From: Clostridioides sp.
GTDB taxonomy: Bacteria; Bacillota; Clostridia; Peptostreptococcales; Peptostreptococcaceae
Assembly: GCA_031261505.1 (NCBI GenBank)
Contig: JAISJN010000018.1
Location: forward strand, 1-64,000
Direction of reading: 5' to 3'
Length of the DNA: 64,000 nt
Shown piece by piece: positions 55,241-64,000 of this stretch (the first letter of the stretch is position 1; every line of letters begins with the position of its first letter). The position numbers and the translations under genes were made by a program. The notes beneath the pieces were generated by a model that saw nothing but the letters and a program-made list of their open reading frames with translations, was not told the origin of the DNA and ran no database searches.

Positions 55241-55645
55241 CAAAAAAGCATAAAAAATCATATGTGAAATGGATAAAGCGATTAAAAGGTGGAGGTGGAG
55301 TGGCGCAAAAATATACTTCGATTAAAATAGTATTTTATCTTAAACTTTTTAGATTTTTTTACTTAAACTTTTAGTAAAAGAACAAGTCACCATAATGTGC
55401 ATATATGGACATAAATTAGACAAATTATTATTTAGATTTTGTTTGACGAAAGAATTAAAAAAACGCAAGCGATGACTAATTAATACCGATTGATATATAG
55501 AAAAATTTAATATAATGTATATTGTATACAGATGATGTGCTGCAAAACGTTTGAAAAAAGTCGTTTAGTGTGTGATTTGGTTTTCCTCAAGAGTGGATTC
55601 TATGTGGAAGGTTTGTCGAAATATATACAAAGGTGAAAGGGTGAG
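55241..55645. other. Intergenic region before the surface-protein operon
   Basis: A+T-rich, no gene seen. TATAAT-like sequences near 55510-55520 could drive the downstream gene. Confidence 0.4.
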
Positions 55646-58519
55646 GTGAAAATGCGTAAGCGTATTAGGAGGCTATTATCGAGCATGGTGTGCTTTATTA
55701 TGGTGATAAGCACATTACAAACTTCAACTATTGCATTTGCACAAGAAAGCAAATTGACTCTGGTTGATAAAGAGGATGGATATAAAAATGGTATTGTTTC
55801 AGTTGGAATTAGCAGAGACAATATAAATGCACAGGCAGAAATTAAAATTAAAGGAATGAGTGGAAATCCGGATAAGGTGTATAGCGCAAGTGATTTGGGG
55901 GATAAGACTGACAAGTCAAATATACATGTGTGGACAGGTTTGAAAGGAAAATATAATAATAATGACTCTAATATTTGGAATAGTCTTACTAGTGGTTGCT
56001 ATAATAGATTTGATGGAAGATACGATGGAAATACAGTCTATATACCGAAAAATGTATATAAACAAAATCAAGATATCAATGTTGAAGTAACATATCCGAA
56101 TGCACTTTACAAAAGAAGTGTAGTATGGAGTGAAGAGTTCAACAAATATGTAGAGGGCCCAAGGATATATGTGACTCCTAAGGTAACATTAAGTGGTTTT
56201 ATAAATGTGCTTGAATGGTATAGGAAAGAAGGGCTTCGACCAGAATATGACGGAATGGCATTGGTATTGTCTAACGATTTTGCAAGTGGAGTTTTTGCTT
56301 GCAATATAGAGGGATATCAGGCTAAATTTGAATTTTATGATAAAGATGGTAAATCTATAGATTTAAATCACGTTACAGTAGTAAATAAAGATGGTAGTAC
56401 TGAAGAGAAAGATAGTATTTGTGATATCGTGTTTGCTTCATTAAATGATAGAACATATGATTTTGAACCGCCTATGGAGGTACGTGAAGGTGTGGCAGTG
56501 ATGAGTCCAAATGAAGGGACAAAAGCATATGCGTATAAGGATTCAAATATTGGAACAAAAAAATTTAAATCTGTAACAGGAGATTCAAAACTTGATTCAA
56601 AAGACTATATAGCAGATTTAAAATGGAATGATTATTATGATAAGTTAGATCTGGTATCGTATTTAGGTATAAGTGAGAATTTTACAGATCAACTTGGAAG
56701 TTCAGATTTTTATAAAAATATGGTAAGTTTTAAAATGAGTGAACTAGATAAATATGAATTTTTCATAAGTGAATTCCAAGTGCCTAAAGATCCTGAAGCT
56801 GATACAACCAAAAAATACGGTCATGCTTGGACTGCTTTTTCAATTGGTAGTGCAGAAAAATACATCAATGAGTATACGAATACTCCAACAAAAAGCGTTT
56901 CTGATGAAGATGAAAAAGATTCCCCAGGCAACTATATAGATTCAAAAGACGAAGAGATGATATACAAGGTAAATCACACTGTTAAAGATTTACATTCTGA
57001 AGTGAGTGAAGTGTACAGTAAATATTCTATTGAAGATGCCTTGCCAAATGAGGTTGAATTTGTATCAGCTGAAATGCTTGTAGATGGGAAACCTTTTGAA
57101 TCAAGTGCTAAACCAGTATACGATAAGGGAACTCACAAGGTCACTTGGGAGGCAAATAAAGAAGATTTAGGATGTATAGATGCAGAAGGAAAATTTGTTA
57201 CGGGAAACATGGCATTAGCAGGAGAAACCTATACCTTATTGATAAGGGTAAAAGTAAAGGCAGAGGCTATCGAATCGGGAAAAGATTTTAAAAATACTGG
57301 GAAAGTAAACTTTGACGACCAAAGTATGACTTCAAATGAAGTAGTAACACATCCACATAAGGATATTGAGGATCCACATAAGGATATAGTTGGTCAGGAA
57401 GGTAAGGACAAAGTAAATCAAGAAAAAGAAAAAGAGTTTTCGTACAACCTAAGTGAAAATATACCAGAAACAATAGCTGCTTTTAAAAACTTTGGATTCA
57501 AGGATGAACTTGATTCTAGACTTGAGTATATTACAGATAGTGCAAAACTTATGGTAGATGGACAGGAACTCAATAAGGCAGATTCTAAGATAACATTCGA
57601 GGAATTAAAGAATACATTGACAGCTACAATCGATGATGAAGACGTTCTTAAAGCTCTTGAAGGGAAGGATAAACTGGAACTTAAGTTTGATGTAAAAATA
57701 AAGGTATCAGCAGAATCAGATAAAGAGATATCTAATACAGGAAAACTAGACTACACAAATAAAAGTGGAGTTACAGGAGAAAAGGATACTAATCCAGTAG
57801 TTGTAGTACCACCGGGAGACCCAATAAAACCAGATGATCCAACAAAGGATGTAAATGGGAAACCAAGTGACAATGCAAACATAGGTCAAGAAGTAACATT
57901 CAATCTAAAAGAAAAATTACCATCGGATATAGAAGAGTACAAGTTATTTGGATTTAAAGACGTATTAGATGAAAAATTAGACTATGTAGCAAATTCAGCA
58001 AAAATGATGTTAGACGGAAAAGAAGTAAGCGGATTCAAAATAAAATACGATTCGTCTTCAAGAACGTTGACAGCAATAGCCAAAGACGATGCAGTAAAAG
58101 CATTGAAAGGTGGAAAAGAATTAGTACTTACATTTAAAGCTAAGTTAAATGAAAAGGCTAAGGGAGAGTCGGAAGTAAAGAACCAAGGAAAATTAGACTA
58201 CACAAATAAAAATGGAGTTACAGGAGAAAAGGATACAAATCCAGTAGTTGTAGTACCACCGGGAGACCCAAATAAGCCTAGTGACCCAAGTAAGCCTAGT
58301 GATCCAGAAAAACCAAGTGATCCAACTACACCGACACCACCTAAGACGCCAGGTACAACAACTGGTGACGATGGCAAAGGACCTTCAACATCGCCAAAAA
58401 CTGGAGATTACACTGACATAAAAAGAATGTATGCAATTGTAATTATATCAGTACTTGGAGTGGCTGGATGTACATTCTACCTAAAAAGGAGAAATAAGAA
58501 AGAGAACGATGTAAAATGA
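55646..58519 (+). CDS. Sortase-anchored surface protein with isopeptide D2 domains
   Basis: 957 residues; start GTG 55646 or ATG 55652. Signal peptide KRIRRLLSSMVCFIMVI..., likely cut after AFA. Residues 40-400 are a unique N-terminal region. Then three related modules (about 430-570, 575-710, 715-860) of the fimbrial isopeptide D2 type, each with a Lys early (DPHKDIVG, DPTKDVNG) and NTGKVNFDD / NTGKLDYTN at the end, where Lys-Asn bonds are expected. Two end with the near-identical NPVVVVPPGDP. A Pro/Ser spacer (SDPSKPSDPEKPSDP) leads to SPKTG at 916-920, a membrane helix and a KRRNKK tail. Probably covalently linked to the wall by the adjacent sortase. Confidence 0.9.
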   Translation: MKMRKRIRRLLSSMVCFIMVISTLQTSTIAFAQESKLTLVDKEDGYKNGIVSVGISRDNINAQAEIKIKGMSGNPDKVYSASDLGDKTDKSNIHVWTGLKGKYNNNDSNIWNSLTSGCYNRFDGRYDGNTVYIPKNVYKQNQDINVEVTYPNALYKRSVVWSEEFNKYVEGPRIYVTPKVTLSGFINVLEWYRKEGLRPEYDGMALVLSNDFASGVFACNIEGYQAKFEFYDKDGKSIDLNHVTVVNKDGSTEEKDSICDIVFASLNDRTYDFEPPMEVREGVAVMSPNEGTKAYAYKDSNIGTKKFKSVTGDSKLDSKDYIADLKWNDYYDKLDLVSYLGISENFTDQLGSSDFYKNMVSFKMSELDKYEFFISEFQVPKDPEADTTKKYGHAWTAFSIGSAEKYINEYTNTPTKSVSDEDEKDSPGNYIDSKDEEMIYKVNHTVKDLHSEVSEVYSKYSIEDALPNEVEFVSAEMLVDGKPFESSAKPVYDKGTHKVTWEANKEDLGCIDAEGKFVTGNMALAGETYTLLIRVKVKAEAIESGKDFKNTGKVNFDDQSMTSNEVVTHPHKDIEDPHKDIVGQEGKDKVNQEKEKEFSYNLSENIPETIAAFKNFGFKDELDSRLEYITDSAKLMVDGQELNKADSKITFEELKNTLTATIDDEDVLKALEGKDKLELKFDVKIKVSAESDKEISNTGKLDYTNKSGVTGEKDTNPVVVVPPGDPIKPDDPTKDVNGKPSDNANIGQEVTFNLKEKLPSDIEEYKLFGFKDVLDEKLDYVANSAKMMLDGKEVSGFKIKYDSSSRTLTAIAKDDAVKALKGGKELVLTFKAKLNEKAKGESEVKNQGKLDYTNKNGVTGEKDTNPVVVVPPGDPNKPSDPSKPSDPEKPSDPTTPTPPKTPGTTTGDDGKGPSTSPKTGDYTDIKRMYAIVIISVLGVAGCTFYLKRRNKKENDVK

Positions 58520-59379
58520 ATGTAAAAAAAATATTTTGTTTGATTATGATTCTGTTTTTTTCGTTCACAGGTATGTATTATGGGGGGAAAGTTTTTATAT
58601 ACGAGAAAGAATCACTGTTACAACAGAGTAGTTTCAATGATTTATTAAACACGGCATCGATAGACGACGATTCAGAAGGGGACTCAACAAATGGATTGTC
58701 AAATGGATTATCAAAATTCAAAGCATCAATTTTTTGGTCCTCGATTTTGGGAAATCAACATGAACAGAAAAAGCAAAAGTCATCGAACTATGTGAATATA
58801 CCATCAAGCAGTGAGGTATGTAGGTTACATGCGAAGAATCCAGATATAGTTGGATGGATAAAAGTTACAAATACAAGAATAAATTATCCTGTTATGCAAA
58901 CAAAGAGCGAGCCGTATTTTTACCTACACCATGATTTAAATAGAAAAACTTCGAATTACGGGGTGCCATGTCTTGGGGAAAATACAGATTTATCAAAGCC
59001 AAGTGATAATTTGATTATATATGGACACCACATGAGAAATGGAACAATGTTTGCGGATTTAGAAGAGTATAAGAATAAAGACTTTTTCAAACAAAATAGA
59101 TATATATATTTCAACACCATAGAGGGTGATGGAAAATATGAGGTTGTAGCAGGGTATAAGACAACAGTGGGTAGTGGTAATGATGAGTTTAAATACTATA
59201 ATTTTGTGGATGCAAGCTCAAAAGAGGAGTTTGATGCCTATGTTGCGAAGAGCAAGGGCAAGGCTTTATATGATACGGGGGTAACTGCATCGTATGGAGA
59301 TAAGTTAATAACTCTCTCGACATGTGAGTATAGTGCTGCAAATGGTAGGATGGTTGTATTAGCAAAAAAGGTTGAGTAA
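58516..59379 (+). CDS. srtB: Class B sortase
   Basis: 287 residues, overlapping the surface-protein stop by ATGA. N-terminal membrane helix (IFCLIMILFFSFTGMYYGG), then the sortase barrel with NPDIVGWIKV, catalytic His in YGHHMRNGTMF (171/172), Cys270 in TLSTCEYS and Arg278 in NGRMVV. The family cleaves a sorting motif and joins it to peptidoglycan or a partner. The neighbouring SPKTG protein is the obvious substrate, matching the (S/P)PxTG preference of C. difficile SrtB. Ends with a hairpin. Confidence 0.93.
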   Translation: MNVKKIFCLIMILFFSFTGMYYGGKVFIYEKESLLQQSSFNDLLNTASIDDDSEGDSTNGLSNGLSKFKASIFWSSILGNQHEQKKQKSSNYVNIPSSSEVCRLHAKNPDIVGWIKVTNTRINYPVMQTKSEPYFYLHHDLNRKTSNYGVPCLGENTDLSKPSDNLIIYGHHMRNGTMFADLEEYKNKDFFKQNRYIYFNTIEGDGKYEVVAGYKTTVGSGNDEFKYYNFVDASSKEEFDAYVAKSKGKALYDTGVTASYGDKLITLSTCEYSAANGRMVVLAKKVE

Positions 59380-59514: not shown

Positions 59515-60375
59515 ATGGATATTTTAAAGAAACGCAATAGCGTAGAGTTTGAAGTCTATGGAAAGTACGCCTTATTTTCAGACCCTGTCACTCGTGTCGG
59601 CGGGGAGAAGATGAGTTATCAAATACCTACGTACCAAGTCTTAAAGGGAATAATGGAAAGTGTATATTGGAAGCCAACTATTATTTGGTACATAGATAAA
59701 GTTAGGGTCATAAATAAGATAGCTACTCAGGATAATGAGATTAGACCTATAAAGATGAGTAGCTGGAAAGAAAATGATTTAGCGTATTGCACTTACCTCA
59801 ACGATGTAAGGTATCAGGTTCTAGCTCATTTTGAATTTAATTTGAATAGACCAGAATTAGAACAGGATCGAAATGAAAATAAACACCATAATATAGCGAA
59901 GAGAAATATAGAAAAGGGAGGTCGCAGAGATATATTTCTAGGGACTCACGAATGTCAAGGCTACGTTATACCCTGCGAATTTGGAGAGGGTGAAGGGTAT
60001 TACGATGAATATGGTGAGATTTCATTTGGACCTATGTTTCACGGATTTAATTACCCAGATGAAACAGGGGAGGATAAATTAGAAACACGTTTTTGGAACG
60101 CAAAAATGGTGGATGGAGTAGTTGACTTCATAAGTCCAGTTGAATGCACAATGGTTAAGTTTATTCGAAAGCAAAAGGCTAAGAGATTTACAGGAGTTAG
60201 GAATGTAACTGTAAAGAAGGGCATGACTGGAGATATGGGATTCACTAAAGATAATGAGATAGCTAAAAATAAAGAGATGGATAAAAATGGATATTTAACT
60301 AAAGTAAAGTGTGTAACTGAAAATCAAGACTGCGTAAAAATAAAGAATTTTACTGTAATTAAGGGAGATTTATAG
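59515..60375 (+). CDS. cas5c: Type I-C CRISPR protein Cas5c (Cas5d)
   Basis: 286 residues, slightly long. In type I-C this protein cuts pre-crRNA and caps Cascade. N-terminal RAMP strand NSVEFEVYGKYALFSDPVTRVGGEKMSYQ, PTYQVLKGIMESVYWKP, a Lys123-His124 pair in ENKHHNIAKR where the family has catalytic Lys-His, then RRDIFLGTHECQGYV. The last 50 residues are Lys-rich and extra. AGGAG 10 bases upstream. No cas3 precedes it (a sortase does); cas8c follows after 12 bases. Confidence 0.92.
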   Translation: MDILKKRNSVEFEVYGKYALFSDPVTRVGGEKMSYQIPTYQVLKGIMESVYWKPTIIWYIDKVRVINKIATQDNEIRPIKMSSWKENDLAYCTYLNDVRYQVLAHFEFNLNRPELEQDRNENKHHNIAKRNIEKGGRRDIFLGTHECQGYVIPCEFGEGEGYYDEYGEISFGPMFHGFNYPDETGEDKLETRFWNAKMVDGVVDFISPVECTMVKFIRKQKAKRFTGVRNVTVKKGMTGDMGFTKDNEIAKNKEMDKNGYLTKVKCVTENQDCVKIKNFTVIKGDL

Positions 60376-60387
60376 GGGGCGTGCGAG

Positions 60388-62373
60388 ATGAGTTTTTGGC
60401 AGGGGTTGGTTGACACTTATGATGTAAATTTCGTCGAATTAGAAAAAGAATTCCCTCTATCTACAACTTCTATTTCAAATAATTCCAACGATATCATAGT
60501 CATCAAACTCGATGGAGATGGAAATCATTTAGGACATTATAAAATCGAAAAAAGAAGTAAGGATGAGAAAGTTATTAATTTTGTATTTCCTGTAAGTGAA
60601 GAGAGCATGGGACGATCTTCTGGTATATATGCACATCCTATATTTGATCAGTTTGAGTATCTTTCTGGAAGTGGCGATAAATTCAAGGCATATATCGGAC
60701 AATTGAGGAGATTTGCAGAGAGCCGTTACACAACACAACAAATCAAGTCAATTTACAACTATATTTCTAAGAAAAGTATTTCATCAGATTTATCAGATAT
60801 GAAAGTAAAACCAGACATAAATATATTGTTTGAGGTGAAGACACGTGTAGGAAACGCGGATAAAGTGTGGGAAAACAATGAAACAATTAGAGCTTGGCAT
60901 AATTACTATATTTCCACGAAGAATCAAGATGAAAGCCTTGATTTTATAACTGGAGAACTGAAAGAATACGCAAGGGCTAATCCTAGAAAAATAACTAATA
61001 GTAGTCCTAATGCAAAGCTGATCTCGGCAAATGATAGATCGAATTTTACATATAGGGGGACTTTCACAAATCCTGAGGACGCGTTGTCAATAGGTTATGA
61101 AAGCAGCCAAAAAGCTCATCAATTTTTGAGATTTTTGGTTAGGGATAGAGGATTGACTTCGGGTGAGCAGGTAATTATCACCTATCAAATAGGACAAGAC
61201 GTGAATATGATGAAGCTCAAGAATCCATTGGCAAACAGTAAAAGTATAGTAAAAACGTTAAGAGATGTGAAAAAAAGTTATGGAATTAAAAATATAATTG
61301 AAGATATTGGTATCGACTATACAAAATTGCTTAAGGAATATGCATTGAGAGAGGAAAAATACAATGCGTTAAATCTACACAAGAAGTCTTCAATCGTCGT
61401 CTTGAGCGAAGAAAATACAGGTCAGATGTGTGTAAAATACTACAAAGAAAAGACGGCAATTATTATTTTGGACGCGGCAACAACAGGTAGACTTGCTGTG
61501 AAATATTATCAAGAGCTAGATAGCGAAGAATATTTGGAAAAACTTATTGACTGGCACGAAACTTGTAAGTTTAATTTCTCGTATTTTGATAAGCTAAATA
61601 ATTACCACAATTGTATACAAACACCTAGCGTGGATAGGATCATCAAAGCGATGTATGTAAGACAAAAAACAAATAATGATATCGGATATAATAAGTTTTC
61701 AAAAACAGCCCGTGAATGCTTAATTCACTGTATTTTCAACGGAGAAAGCATTCCAAGAGATTATGTAGACAAAGTGGTCAGAAGAGCTTCAATGCCATTT
61801 AACATCAAGGGTAAAATTTATGAAAAAGTCGTACGAGAATATGAAGAGATAGTAAGTATAGCCTGTGCATTGGTGAGAAAATCAGTGAAAGATGTGTACG
61901 AATTGAGTTTAGAAAGAGAAAATACAAAAAGGGATTACCTATTCGGACGATTACTAGGAGCTGCAGAAAAGTTAGAATCCGGTGAAAATAAAAAAATTAT
62001 GAATGAGCGAGCGACTATAGCAGTGAGATATATGAGTGATTTTTCTAATAAACCATTCAAGACATGGCTTATAATTCGTGAAAGGCTAGTTCCATATATA
62101 CAGAGTCTTGAGATGGATAAGAGTCCTATGTATTTAAGAACAGAGGAAATTGCGAATTCAGAGATAGAAGAAATAGAAAATATGTTTAAGATAAGCGATT
62201 TTGAAAATAATTTGCCACTTAGTGGGATTTTCTTGATTGGATATGCCTGTGAAAAAGCATGGATCAGCGAAGAAGACATAAGATTATCTAGAAAAAATGT
62301 ATCTATGAAAGAAGAAGTTATGAAATTATCTAGGGAAAATACGCAGATTGAAATTGCATTAAGTTCACAATAA
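60388..62373 (+). CDS. cas8c: Type I-C large subunit Cas8c (Csd1), copy 1
   Basis: 661 residues. MSFWQGLVDTYD, FPVSEESMGRSSGIYAHPIFDQFEYL, IRAWHNYY, SANDRSNFTYRG and SYESSQKAHQFLRFLVRDRG-type segments match the Csd1 family, the PAM-recognising large subunit of I-C Cascade. GGGGGCG lies 8 bases before ATG. Followed not by cas7 but by a decayed array and a second cas8c. About 650 residues is at the long end for the family; the C-terminus (ENTQIEIALSSQ) has no obvious domain. Confidence 0.92.
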   Translation: MSFWQGLVDTYDVNFVELEKEFPLSTTSISNNSNDIIVIKLDGDGNHLGHYKIEKRSKDEKVINFVFPVSEESMGRSSGIYAHPIFDQFEYLSGSGDKFKAYIGQLRRFAESRYTTQQIKSIYNYISKKSISSDLSDMKVKPDINILFEVKTRVGNADKVWENNETIRAWHNYYISTKNQDESLDFITGELKEYARANPRKITNSSPNAKLISANDRSNFTYRGTFTNPEDALSIGYESSQKAHQFLRFLVRDRGLTSGEQVIITYQIGQDVNMMKLKNPLANSKSIVKTLRDVKKSYGIKNIIEDIGIDYTKLLKEYALREEKYNALNLHKKSSIVVLSEENTGQMCVKYYKEKTAIIILDAATTGRLAVKYYQELDSEEYLEKLIDWHETCKFNFSYFDKLNNYHNCIQTPSVDRIIKAMYVRQKTNNDIGYNKFSKTARECLIHCIFNGESIPRDYVDKVVRRASMPFNIKGKIYEKVVREYEEIVSIACALVRKSVKDVYELSLERENTKRDYLFGRLLGAAEKLESGENKKIMNERATIAVRYMSDFSNKPFKTWLIIRERLVPYIQSLEMDKSPMYLRTEEIANSEIEEIENMFKISDFENNLPLSGIFLIGYACEKAWISEEDIRLSRKNVSMKEEVMKLSRENTQIEIALSSQ

Positions 62374-62384
62374 AAGAGGCATGT

Positions 62385-62580
62385 GTCTCACTCTTTGGAG
62401 TATCATATGACAGCCTTAGAGTGCGTGGATTGAAATGATTAAAATAGAATAGGAACTATCAATTAAGTAATAAAGAAAGATACACTCGCTTTTACAGCGT
62501 GGATTTAAATTTGGATATGGAATATTAAATAAGGAAGGTTTTAAGTTTACAATCGCATCATAAGATGTGTGGATTAAAAT
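62385..62580 (+). CRISPR. Decayed type I-C CRISPR array
   Basis: Repeat-like tails GCGTGGATTGAAAT (62423-62436), GCGTGGATTTAAAT (62497-62510) and GTGTGGATTAAAAT (62567-62580) are 74 and 70 bases apart, as expected for a 32-base repeat with a 35-40 base spacer. 5' halves with hairpin potential precede each (CACTCGCTTTTACAGCGTG, AATCGCATCATAAGATGTG), and GTCTCACTCTTTGGAGT sits at 62385-62401. The GTGGATTGAAAT end is the I-C repeat hallmark. All units differ, so the array is degenerate and probably inactive. Confidence 0.65.
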
Positions 62581-62630
62581 AGTGTTTATGATAAATTAAA
62601 TAATTGAGCGATGTAGATTTATCACAACCG

Positions 62631-62670
62631 AAACGAAAACGACCCAACCTGTGACGGGTCGTTTTCGTTT
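62631..62670 (+). terminator. Perfect 15-bp hairpin after the CRISPR relic
   Basis: AAACGAAAACGACCC (62631-62645) pairs with GGGTCGTTTTCGTTT (62656-62670). Confidence 0.85.
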
Positions 62671-62674
62671 ATAT

Positions 62675-62724
62675 AATTAGAGAGAGCAACCTATACCTAA
62701 GTATGGTTGCTCTCTCTAATTTTA
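62675..62724. terminator. Second perfect 17-bp hairpin
   Basis: AATTAGAGAGAGCAACC (62675-62691) pairs with GGTTGCTCTCTCTAATT (62705-62721), T-rich tails on both strands. Confidence 0.85.
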
Positions 62725-62775
62725 GGAAAAATATATATTTTAGGAAATATATATATTTTAGGAAATATAAAATAG
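62719..62775 (+). repeat. Short tandem repeat TTTTAGGAAATATATATA
   Basis: Three units of about 18 bases containing TTTTAGGAAA and TATATA. Confidence 0.6.
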
Positions 62776-62974
62776 ATGTCGTTTTGATAGGCAAATGCGT
62801 TGTTTTGAGAAATGTGATTTAAATAAGGTCAAGGGAGAAATTATTTTTAGATGCTGAAATATGCACTACAGTTGATATTTTGATGAGTTTGAATGCTATT
62901 TCTATACACATTATCAAAAATACCGAAAAAAATGATATTATTCAGTATATACACTGTATACATTTGTGGTGGAA
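62776..62974. other. Gene-free spacer before DPE copy M
   Basis: No gene recognised. A possible promoter-like ATACACTGTATACA palindrome lies near 62949-62962. Confidence 0.4.
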
Positions 62975-63101
62975 TATAAGTTGAGATAAATGTCCTCCAC
63001 CGCCATAGGCGGCGGGCATAAATCTCATTTCAGTGTGGGTTGAAATTACCAAGCATGTACTCGCCAGCACAAGTACTTTACAGAACAAGTAATCACAATT
63101 T
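62975..63101 (-). repeat. DPE copy M with inserted units, adjacent to cas5 scar
   Basis: TATAAGTTGAGATAAATG, CCTCCACCGCCATAGGCGGC hairpin, CATAAATCTCATTTCAGTGTGGG, then insert units ACTCGCCAGCACAAGTAC like those of copy I, ending CACAATTT. The cas5 remnant starts 6 bases later. Confidence 0.88.
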
Positions 63102-63107
63102 AGATGA

Positions 63108-63143
63108 AATAGCGTCGAGTTTGAAGTCTACGGGAGGTATGAA
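63108..63143 (+). pseudogene. cas5c scar: 11 codons fused in frame to cas8c copy 2
   Basis: AAT AGC GTC GAG TTT GAA (and on to 63140) encodes NSVEFEVYGRY, residues 8-18 of Cas5c (28 of 33 bases identical to 59536-59568). A TGA precedes it, so it is not translated from its own start. The next codons are GAA and the ATG of cas8c. The rest of cas5 is deleted. Its GGGAGG now lies 7 bases before that ATG. Confidence 0.85.
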
Positions 63144-64000
63144 ATGAGTTTTTGGCAGGGTTTAGTTGAGACTTACGATGCAAATTACGATGAATTAGAG
63201 AAAGAATTTCCTCTATCTACAACTTCGATTTCGAATAATTCCAATGAAATTATAGTTATTAAACTAGATGTAGACGGAAATTATTTAGGATATTATAAAA
63301 TAGAAAAAAGAAAGAACAAAGAGGAAGTAAGTGATTTTGTATTTCCTGTCACTGAACTCAGCATGGGTCGCTCGTGCGGAATATGCGCGCATCCAATCTT
63401 TGACCAATTCGGCTATCTTTCTGGAGAGGGAGATAAATTCGAAGCGTATATCAAGCAATTAAGAGATTTCGAACAGAGTAGATATGCAACAAGTCAAATT
63501 AAAGCAATTTTTAACTATGTTTCGGGGAAAAGCATTCTGTCAGACTTAGCGGATATAAAAATAAAAGGAAATAAAAATATTTTATTTGAAGTAGAAACAG
63601 GTGGCGCAGGAGAGGCAAAAGTTTGGGAAAACAAGGAAACAATTAGAGCTTGGCATAATTACTATCTTTCCACTAAGGAGCAAGATGAGAGCTTTGATTT
63701 TATAACTGGAAAAATTCAAAAGCTAGCAAGGGCTCATCCTAGAAAAATTTCTAACACGAGTGGTAATGCAAAATTGATATCTGCAAATGATCGATCAAAT
63801 TTCACATACAGAGGAATTTTTGCGGATTCAGATGAAGCCTTGTCAATAGGTTATGAAAGCAGCCAGAAAGCTCACCAACTCTTGAGATTTTTAATCAGAG
63901 ATAGAGGATTGAGCTTGGGGGAACAGGTGATCATCGCCTATGAAATAGGACAAGACTTGAATTCAATGAAGCTCAAAAATCCACTAGAAAGCGGTAAAAA
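63144..64000 (+). CDS. cas8c: Type I-C Cas8c (Csd1), copy 2, cut by window end
   Basis: Open from ATG 63144 to the end, 285 codons. Aligns throughout with the first 285 residues of copy 1: MSFWQGLVETYDANYDELEKEFPLSTTSISNNS (same blocks), SCGICAHPIFDQFGYLSG, IRAWHNYYLSTK, SANDRSNFTYRGIF, ESSQKAHQLLRFL. It has no frameshift so far and looks functional. The ribosome site GGGAGG comes from cas5-derived sequence. Genes beyond the edge, possibly cas7-cas4-cas1-cas2, cannot be seen. Confidence 0.9.
   Translation, partial: MSFWQGLVETYDANYDELEKEFPLSTTSISNNSNEIIVIKLDVDGNYLGYYKIEKRKNKEEVSDFVFPVTELSMGRSCGICAHPIFDQFGYLSGEGDKFEAYIKQLRDFEQSRYATSQIKAIFNYVSGKSILSDLADIKIKGNKNILFEVETGGAGEAKVWENKETIRAWHNYYLSTKEQDESFDFITGKIQKLARAHPRKISNTSGNAKLISANDRSNFTYRGIFADSDEALSIGYESSQKAHQLLRFLIRDRGLSLGEQVIIAYEIGQDLNSMKLKNPLESGK

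What the first reader, a model, noticed from the sequence alone, without database searches (positions are those of the whole stretch)
59515..64000. Type I-C locus with two cas8c copies around a decayed CRISPR array
Order is cas5c, cas8c-1, array relic, two terminators, DPE, cas5 scar, cas8c-2. A normal I-C operon is cas3-cas5-cas8c-cas7-cas4-cas1-cas2. Copy 1 lacks cas3 before it and cas7 after it. Both cas8c frames are open, so both large subunits may be made. That suggests either a partial duplication being resolved or Cascade with alternative large subunits.
Basis: partly seen in the sequence, partly recalled or inferred. Interest (0 to 1): 0.72.

Follow-up and report, generated by a model that had tools for sequence, protein, structure and literature searches.

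The report
Duplicated CRISPR subunits with conserved guides
A bacterium carries two extra, intact copies of a CRISPR targeting-complex subunit, each followed by a worn-looking guide array in which mainly the guide handles and two 13-14-letter seeds survived, and one of these seeds points at the bacterium's own surface-protein genes, so this looks like a CRISPR complex reused to control the cell surface.

Summary
The gene order is real: cas5c, cas8c-1, degenerate array A, terminators, cas5 scar, cas8c-2. Past 64000, cas8c-2 is complete (650 aa) and followed by a second degenerate array, B. A full I-C operon, with the cas7 missing here, lies on another contig. Both extra cas8c are under purifying selection (dN/dS 0.15-0.19) and keep the conserved core, so this is not plain decay. 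The 'relic' arrays matter most: at synonymous distance about 1.0, two spacer seeds (13 and 14 nt) are identical between A and B, while the spacer 3' ends are 48% and 14% identical (chance about 4e-7). With a TTC PAM and the seed rule shown for CreA guides (nt 1-5, 7-11), the shared seed AGTGTTTATGATAA has two genomic sites, both at heads of CWB2/WxL surface-protein operons; array A's first seed has one, upstream of the adjacent pilin-sortase operon. Best explanation: a duplicated Cas5c-Cas8c pair plus ectopic crRNAs that bind host surface genes without cutting, borrowing Cas7. Processing, binding and repression are inferred. The other conserved seed has no credible target. The fourth 'repeat' (63033) belongs to an abundant intergenic element. 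No other sampled genome shows this layout.

The parts
59515..60375 (+). cas5c copy, 286 aa, 79% identical to the operon Cas5c, with a 42-aa longer C-terminus
60388..62373 (+). cas8c-1, 661 aa, intact; fold of I-C Cascade Cas8c including the C-terminal small-subunit region
62384..62630 (+). degenerate array A: three units with I-C handle (handles end at 62436, 62510, 62580); seeds A1 GATTAAAATAGAAT from 62437, A2 TTGGATATGGAAT from 62511, A3 AGTGTTTATGATAA from 62581
62631..62670 (+). terminator ending array A (15-bp perfect stem with T-rich tail)
62672..62724 (.). second hairpin, 20-bp arms, 95% complementary
62976..63107 (+). copy of an abundant intergenic (MITE-like) element; source of the false fourth repeat at 63033
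63108..63139 (+). scar of a deleted second cas5c; its GGGAGG lies 6 nt before the cas8c-2 start and may serve as ribosome-binding site
   Evidence: the ribosome-binding role is inference
63144..64000 (+). cas8c-2, 650 aa; continues past the window to C9:65096; degenerate array B (4 units) follows at C9:65130-65480 with guides B1, B2 (= A2 seed), B3, B4 (= A3 seed) and a terminator-like stem
55317..55333 (+). only genomic TTC + seed site of guide A1 (TTCGATTAAAATAGTAT), upstream of the pilin-sortase operon 55646-59379

Best explanation
A Cas5c-Cas8c pair was copied from the I-C operon, acquired a short array, and was tandemly duplicated. The arrays then became fixed, degenerate guide genes. Proposed working: array RNA is cut at its hairpins by Cas5c (C9 or C10 copy); the crRNAs, which keep the I-C handle, load into Cascade made of Cas5c, Cas8c-1 or Cas8c-2, and Cas7 supplied by the C10 operon. 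The complex binds TTC-preceded sites that match only the seed at the heads of surface operons: CWB2/WxL operons through guide A3/B4, and the neighbouring pilin-sortase operon through A1. Because only the seed matches, Cas3 should not be triggered and the outcome is repression. Shown: intact, constrained genes; conserved seeds and handles; seed matches in the genome. Inferred: RNA processing, make-up of the complex, binding, repression, and whether Cas8c-1/2 are needed or the canonical Cas8c also uses these guides.
For: dN/dS 0.19 and 0.15; 39 and 38 of 41 strongly conserved Cas8c columns kept; I-C Cas8c fold. Seeds S2 and S3 identical in both arrays (27/27) although fourfold sites of the adjacent cas8c pair are 57.7% identical and spacer 3' ends 10/21 and 3/21. 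A3/B4: two TTC sites with 13 and 11 consecutive non-flipped matches, both at heads of CWB2/WxL operons, mismatched only at flip positions 6 and 12 within the first 13 nt, and sharing a 16-mer at non-homologous positions. A1: one TTC site with 12 matches beside the locus. Expected per guide genome-wide 0.03-0.06 at 12 and about 0.01 at 13. The seed rule, TTC PAM and degenerate repeats are those of CreA guides (PMC8501985, PMC9458426). The same search found a clear positive in an unrelated I-C locus.
Against: S2, equally conserved, has no credible target: its three 10-match sites are in housekeeping coding sequence. B1 and B3 matches are at the level of reversed controls. The A1 site lies well upstream of the best-looking pilin promoter. 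The C21 site is inside coding sequence. Hairpin folding energies are not individually significant. No expression data; one genome only. The surface-gene category was recognised after the search.
Confidence: 0.5

Rival explanations
1. A decaying partial duplication of the I-C operon: the extra genes and arrays have no present function.
For: cas7, cas3 and the adaptation genes are missing here; one cas5 is reduced to a scar; repeats are degenerate; a transposase fragment follows array B.
Against: Both frames open at dS about 1 with dN/dS 0.15-0.19; conserved core kept; seeds conserved beyond neutral expectation.
Confidence: 0.18
2. Spare large subunits for defence: Cas8c-1 and Cas8c-2 assemble with Cas7 from C10 and the normal array, giving other PAM choice or escape from anti-CRISPR proteins that bind Cas8c; the arrays are leftover immune spacers.
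For: Intact diverged Cas8c; cas7 in trans; anti-CRISPRs that bind I-C Cascade are solved (8dfs and 8dfo).
Against: Does not explain conservation of seeds and handles without spacer 3' ends, or the surface-operon matches; the normal array has only two intact repeats.
Confidence: 0.15
3. A CreTA-type addiction module: the arrays are creA antitoxins that repress a toxin RNA and so guard the CRISPR locus.
For: Degenerate repeats, seed-length conservation, TTC PAM (PMC8501985, PMC9458426).
Against: CreA targets lie in cis; no guide has a good TTC + seed site within the C9 or C10 cas loci (at most 7-8 consecutive matches); matches lie in surface operons instead; the unexplained S2 leaves some room.
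Confidence: 0.1
4. A phage-derived solo cas5-cas8 pair that interferes with host Cascade.
For: A cas5-cas8 pair without the rest of the operon.
Against: No relatives in phage records or viral contigs; copies derive from the host's own operon; no phage genes seen around.
Confidence: 0.04

Closest known systems
CreA guides of CreTA modules (type I; PMC8501985, PMC9458426)
   Same: Degenerate ectopic repeats, handle kept, pairing through nt 1-5 and 7-11 after a TTC PAM, binding by Cascade without cutting
   Different: No toxin and no target in cis; several guides per unit; linked to duplicated cas5c/cas8c; targets look like host surface operons
scaRNA-Cas9 repression of a lipoprotein operon in Francisella novicida (as summarised in PMC9458426)
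   Same: A degenerate CRISPR RNA directs a CRISPR effector to the 5' region of host surface genes through a short match
   Different: Class 2 single-protein effector, no duplicated effector genes
TldR RNA-guided repressors of flagellin (PMC13418256)
   Same: Nuclease-family relative plus fixed guide used to control a surface structure
   Different: TnpB-derived and phage-borne; unrelated protein
Canonical type I-C CRISPR-Cas (for example Desulfovibrio vulgaris, PMC7684278)
   Same: Cas5c and Cas8c families, Cas8c fold, handle and hairpin type of repeat
   Different: No cas7, cas3, cas4, cas1 or cas2 at this locus; repeats not identical; two cas8c genes in tandem

Membership tests
Cas8c/Csd1 protein family | Score over the curated cut-off and I-C Cas8c fold | tested here: met
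   cas8c-1 227 bits against 218.65; all three copies over the PF09709 cut-off; Foldseek to I-C Cascade Cas8c, E 2.9e-18
Complete type I-C CRISPR-Cas locus | cas3-cas5-cas8c-cas7-cas4-cas1-cas2 in one operon | tested here: not met
   Only cas5c and cas8c here; the full set is at C10
Complete type I-C CRISPR-Cas locus | Array of near-identical 32-nt repeats | tested here: not met
   Units share the handle but not the 5' half or loop; a normal array is at C10
CreTA module | Degenerate repeats with kept processing elements | tested here: inconclusive
   Handle conserved; hairpins readable but not significant by folding energy; processing untested
CreTA module | TTC PAM and seed match (nt 1-5, 7-11) to the promoter of a toxin in cis | tested here: not met
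   Sites are in trans, or 5 kb away for A1, at surface operons; none in the cas loci
CRISPR-guided regulation of host genes | Short guide match at the 5' region of host genes | tested here: met
   A3/B4 at two CWB2/WxL operon heads, A1 at the pilin operon; S2 without target
CRISPR-guided regulation of host genes | Change of target expression when guide or effector is removed | not testable with these tools
   Needs RNA-seq or reporter assays
Phage-borne solo cas genes | Close relatives in phages or viral contigs | tested here: not met
   No match

The most novel reading that the evidence does not exclude
A paralogous Cascade (Cas5c and Cas8c duplicates, borrowing Cas7) has become a dedicated RNA-guided regulator of cell-surface operons, with its own fixed guides conserved only at seed length: a class 1 counterpart of scaRNA-Cas9 and TldR regulation.
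Probability: 0.33. Interest if true: 0.88.

Novelty: new variant of a known kind. Interest (0 to 1): 0.72.

Why it matters
Known CRISPR-guided regulators reuse the cell's one effector. Here the effector's own subunits appear duplicated and kept alongside fixed guides, which would show how a multi-subunit immune complex splits into a defence copy and a regulatory copy. The conserved seeds name the likely targets, so the idea can be tested with one small-RNA library and one reporter assay. It also shows that an array that looks dead can be conserved exactly where a guide needs it.

Tried and rejected
Fourth repeat at 63033 and its 'spacer': rejected as a CRISPR unit because it lies in an abundant intergenic element. 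Rfam on the region: nothing relevant, best E 0.92. Targets for A2/B2: 14-mer search, TTC + seed with up to 2 mismatches (this pattern had its second free position at 11 instead of 12; its hits were re-read by hand), and a PAM-free search with positions 6 and 12 free; hits at C13, C14, C1, C7, C16 and C18 are in coding sequence or lack a TTC PAM. B1 (3' end of a CWB2 gene) and B3 (upstream of a MerR gene) hits set aside because reversed controls give as many. Close relatives of this Cas8c: none above about 37% identity in 119 related genomes, none in GTDB contigs with the three-copy profile; a broader profile gave 80 ordinary I-C loci, the best at 54% in a Lactobacillales MAG. Phage and viral relatives: none. 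PDB by sequence with the three-copy profile: nothing; by fold: I-C Cas8c. Internal Cas11c start sites compared between copies: inconclusive. A 17-match hit in the mock-guide control was traced to a spacer meeting its own locus.

Full report
WHAT IS THERE. The window is contig C9:1-64000 of a 2.14-Mb, 21-contig AT-rich genome. At its right end lie cas5c (59515-60375), cas8c-1 (60388-62373), a degenerate array (A), two hairpins, a copy of an intergenic element, a 32-nt scar of cas5c and cas8c-2 from 63144. Reading on, cas8c-2 ends at C9:65096 as an intact 650-aa frame and is followed by a second degenerate array (B), then a transposase fragment. The same genome has a complete I-C operon at C10:11225-19030 (cas3, cas5, cas8c, cas7, cas4, cas1, cas2) with two normal repeats and a third, worn one, beside a Cas12a locus. 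So the window's locus lacks cas7 but the genome does not.

THE GENES ARE ALIVE. Copy 2 and the operon copy are 69% and 63% identical to copy 1. Between copies 1 and 2 dN is 0.19 and dS 1.02; between copy 1 and the operon copy 0.26 and 1.66. Of 41 columns at least 95% conserved in 79 other Cas8c proteins, the copies keep 39 (copy 1), 38 (copy 2) and 39 (operon). The tree is (Lactobacillales MAG L131,(operon copy,(copy 1, copy 2))) with strong support: copied from the operon in this lineage, then duplicated in tandem. The model of Cas8c-1 (mean pLDDT 79.8) matches solved I-C Cascade Cas8c and, at its C-terminus, the small subunit. Duplication like this is rare: in 391 genomes of the class, 62 have a Cas8c match, none other has three, and one other has two full-length copies, on separate contigs. 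In the 80 best other Cas8c loci, cas7 follows cas8c wherever the contig continues.

THE ARRAYS ARE NOT SIMPLY DEAD. Units in A and B differ widely in the 5' half and loop of the repeat but keep a handle close to TGGATTNAAAT. Guide S2 is TTGGATATGGAAT in both arrays and then diverges (10/21 identical); guide S3 is AGTGTTTATGATAA in both and then diverges (3/21). Fourfold-degenerate sites of the adjacent cas8c pair are 57.7% identical, so 27 of 27 identical seed letters has a chance of 3.6e-7. The conserved stretch begins where a crRNA spacer begins and has seed length. Each array ends in a terminator-like stem. Gene conversion confined to two seeds would be an odd coincidence but is not excluded. 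Hairpin conservation is suggestive only: stems can be read in most units, some with changes that keep pairing (CGCACTC/GAGTGCG to CGCATT/AATGCG, for example), but folding energies are not individually significant.

TARGETS. CreA guides repress through a TTC PAM and pairing at nt 1-5 and 7-11, positions 6 and 12 being free (PMC8501985). Applied genome-wide, S3 (A3/B4) has a single site without mismatch, C21:1810 (13 consecutive non-flipped matches for B4), and a second, C18:106902, with 11. Both mismatch the guide at flip positions 6 and 12. C21:1810 lies in the signal-peptide codons of a CWB2-repeat protein heading a WxL-type surface operon; a paralogous operon about 6 kb on has the same place with two changes. 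C18:106902 lies in the intergenic region about 270 bp before another CWB2/WxL operon. The two heads share the 16-mer TTCAGTGTATATGAAA at non-homologous positions and little else. A1 has one site, C9:55317, upstream of the pilin-sortase operon adjacent to the CRISPR locus. Per guide, about 0.03-0.06 such sites are expected genome-wide at 12 matches and 0.01 at 13. Mock guides from real spacers of this genome reach at most 9 in 379 kb apart from one self match, although part of that sequence had been fetched because it held hits. Heads of the 31 CWB2 genes make up under 1% of the genome (own estimate). The method found a clear positive in an unrelated I-C locus (Methylobacter L162). Weak points: S2, as conserved as S3, has no credible target; B1 and B3 are at chance level; the A1 site is well upstream of the likely promoter; the shared 16-mer might be a protein operator that a guide happens to match; the surface-gene category was not fixed in advance.

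MECHANISM. Most likely Cascade, guided by these fixed crRNAs, binds surface-operon heads by seed pairing and blocks transcription without recruiting Cas3. Cas7 must come from the C10 operon. Whether Cas8c-1/2 define a separate complex or only add large subunit is open.

NOVELTY. It works like CreA, scaRNA-Cas9 and TldR, but it is not a CreTA (no toxin or target in cis) and not a canonical I-C locus. Retained duplicated Cascade subunits beside degenerate host-directed guides were not found in the papers searched, which are an open-access subset.

Noticed in passing
window 62976-63107; at least 32 copies in 379 kb of this genome: Abundant intergenic element, consensus near TATAACTTGAGATAAATGTCCCCCACCTCTATAGGTGGCGGGCATAAATCTCATTTCAGTGGGGGTTGAAATCCCCCACTGAAAGCGTTGAATCATCATTTAA, two hairpins; it mimics a CRISPR handle.
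   Followed up: partly
L227:3330-3440 (C14:29330-29440): Three tandem 43-48-nt units carrying the I-C handle (GTGCGTGGATTGAAA) between a glycosyltransferase gene and ugd in a polysaccharide locus: further ectopic I-C repeats; no target found.
   Followed up: partly
L162:6740-7210 (Candidatus Methylobacter oryzae): Lone degenerate I-C repeat in a large cas3-cas5 gap whose spacer start matches a TTC site (15 non-flipped matches in a row) in the same gap: looks like an unreported CreA/CreR-type guide in type I-C.
   Followed up: partly
G372:C86:15205-17484: A Cas8c frame of 784 aa in which the C-terminal (small-subunit) segment is matched twice.
   Followed up: no
L006:3849-10290 (C10): Cas12a (type V-A) locus with cas4, cas1, cas2 and a 12-repeat array directly beside the I-C operon.
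   Followed up: no
whole genome: About 31 CWB2-repeat proteins (91 repeats) in 2.1 Mb, several heading WxL-type operons: an unusually large surface repertoire.
   Followed up: partly
L010:1501-1514 (C16:49937): Third exact copy of TTTGGATATGGAAT, 64 nt into an HD-domain gene and without a TTC PAM; may be chance.
   Followed up: partly
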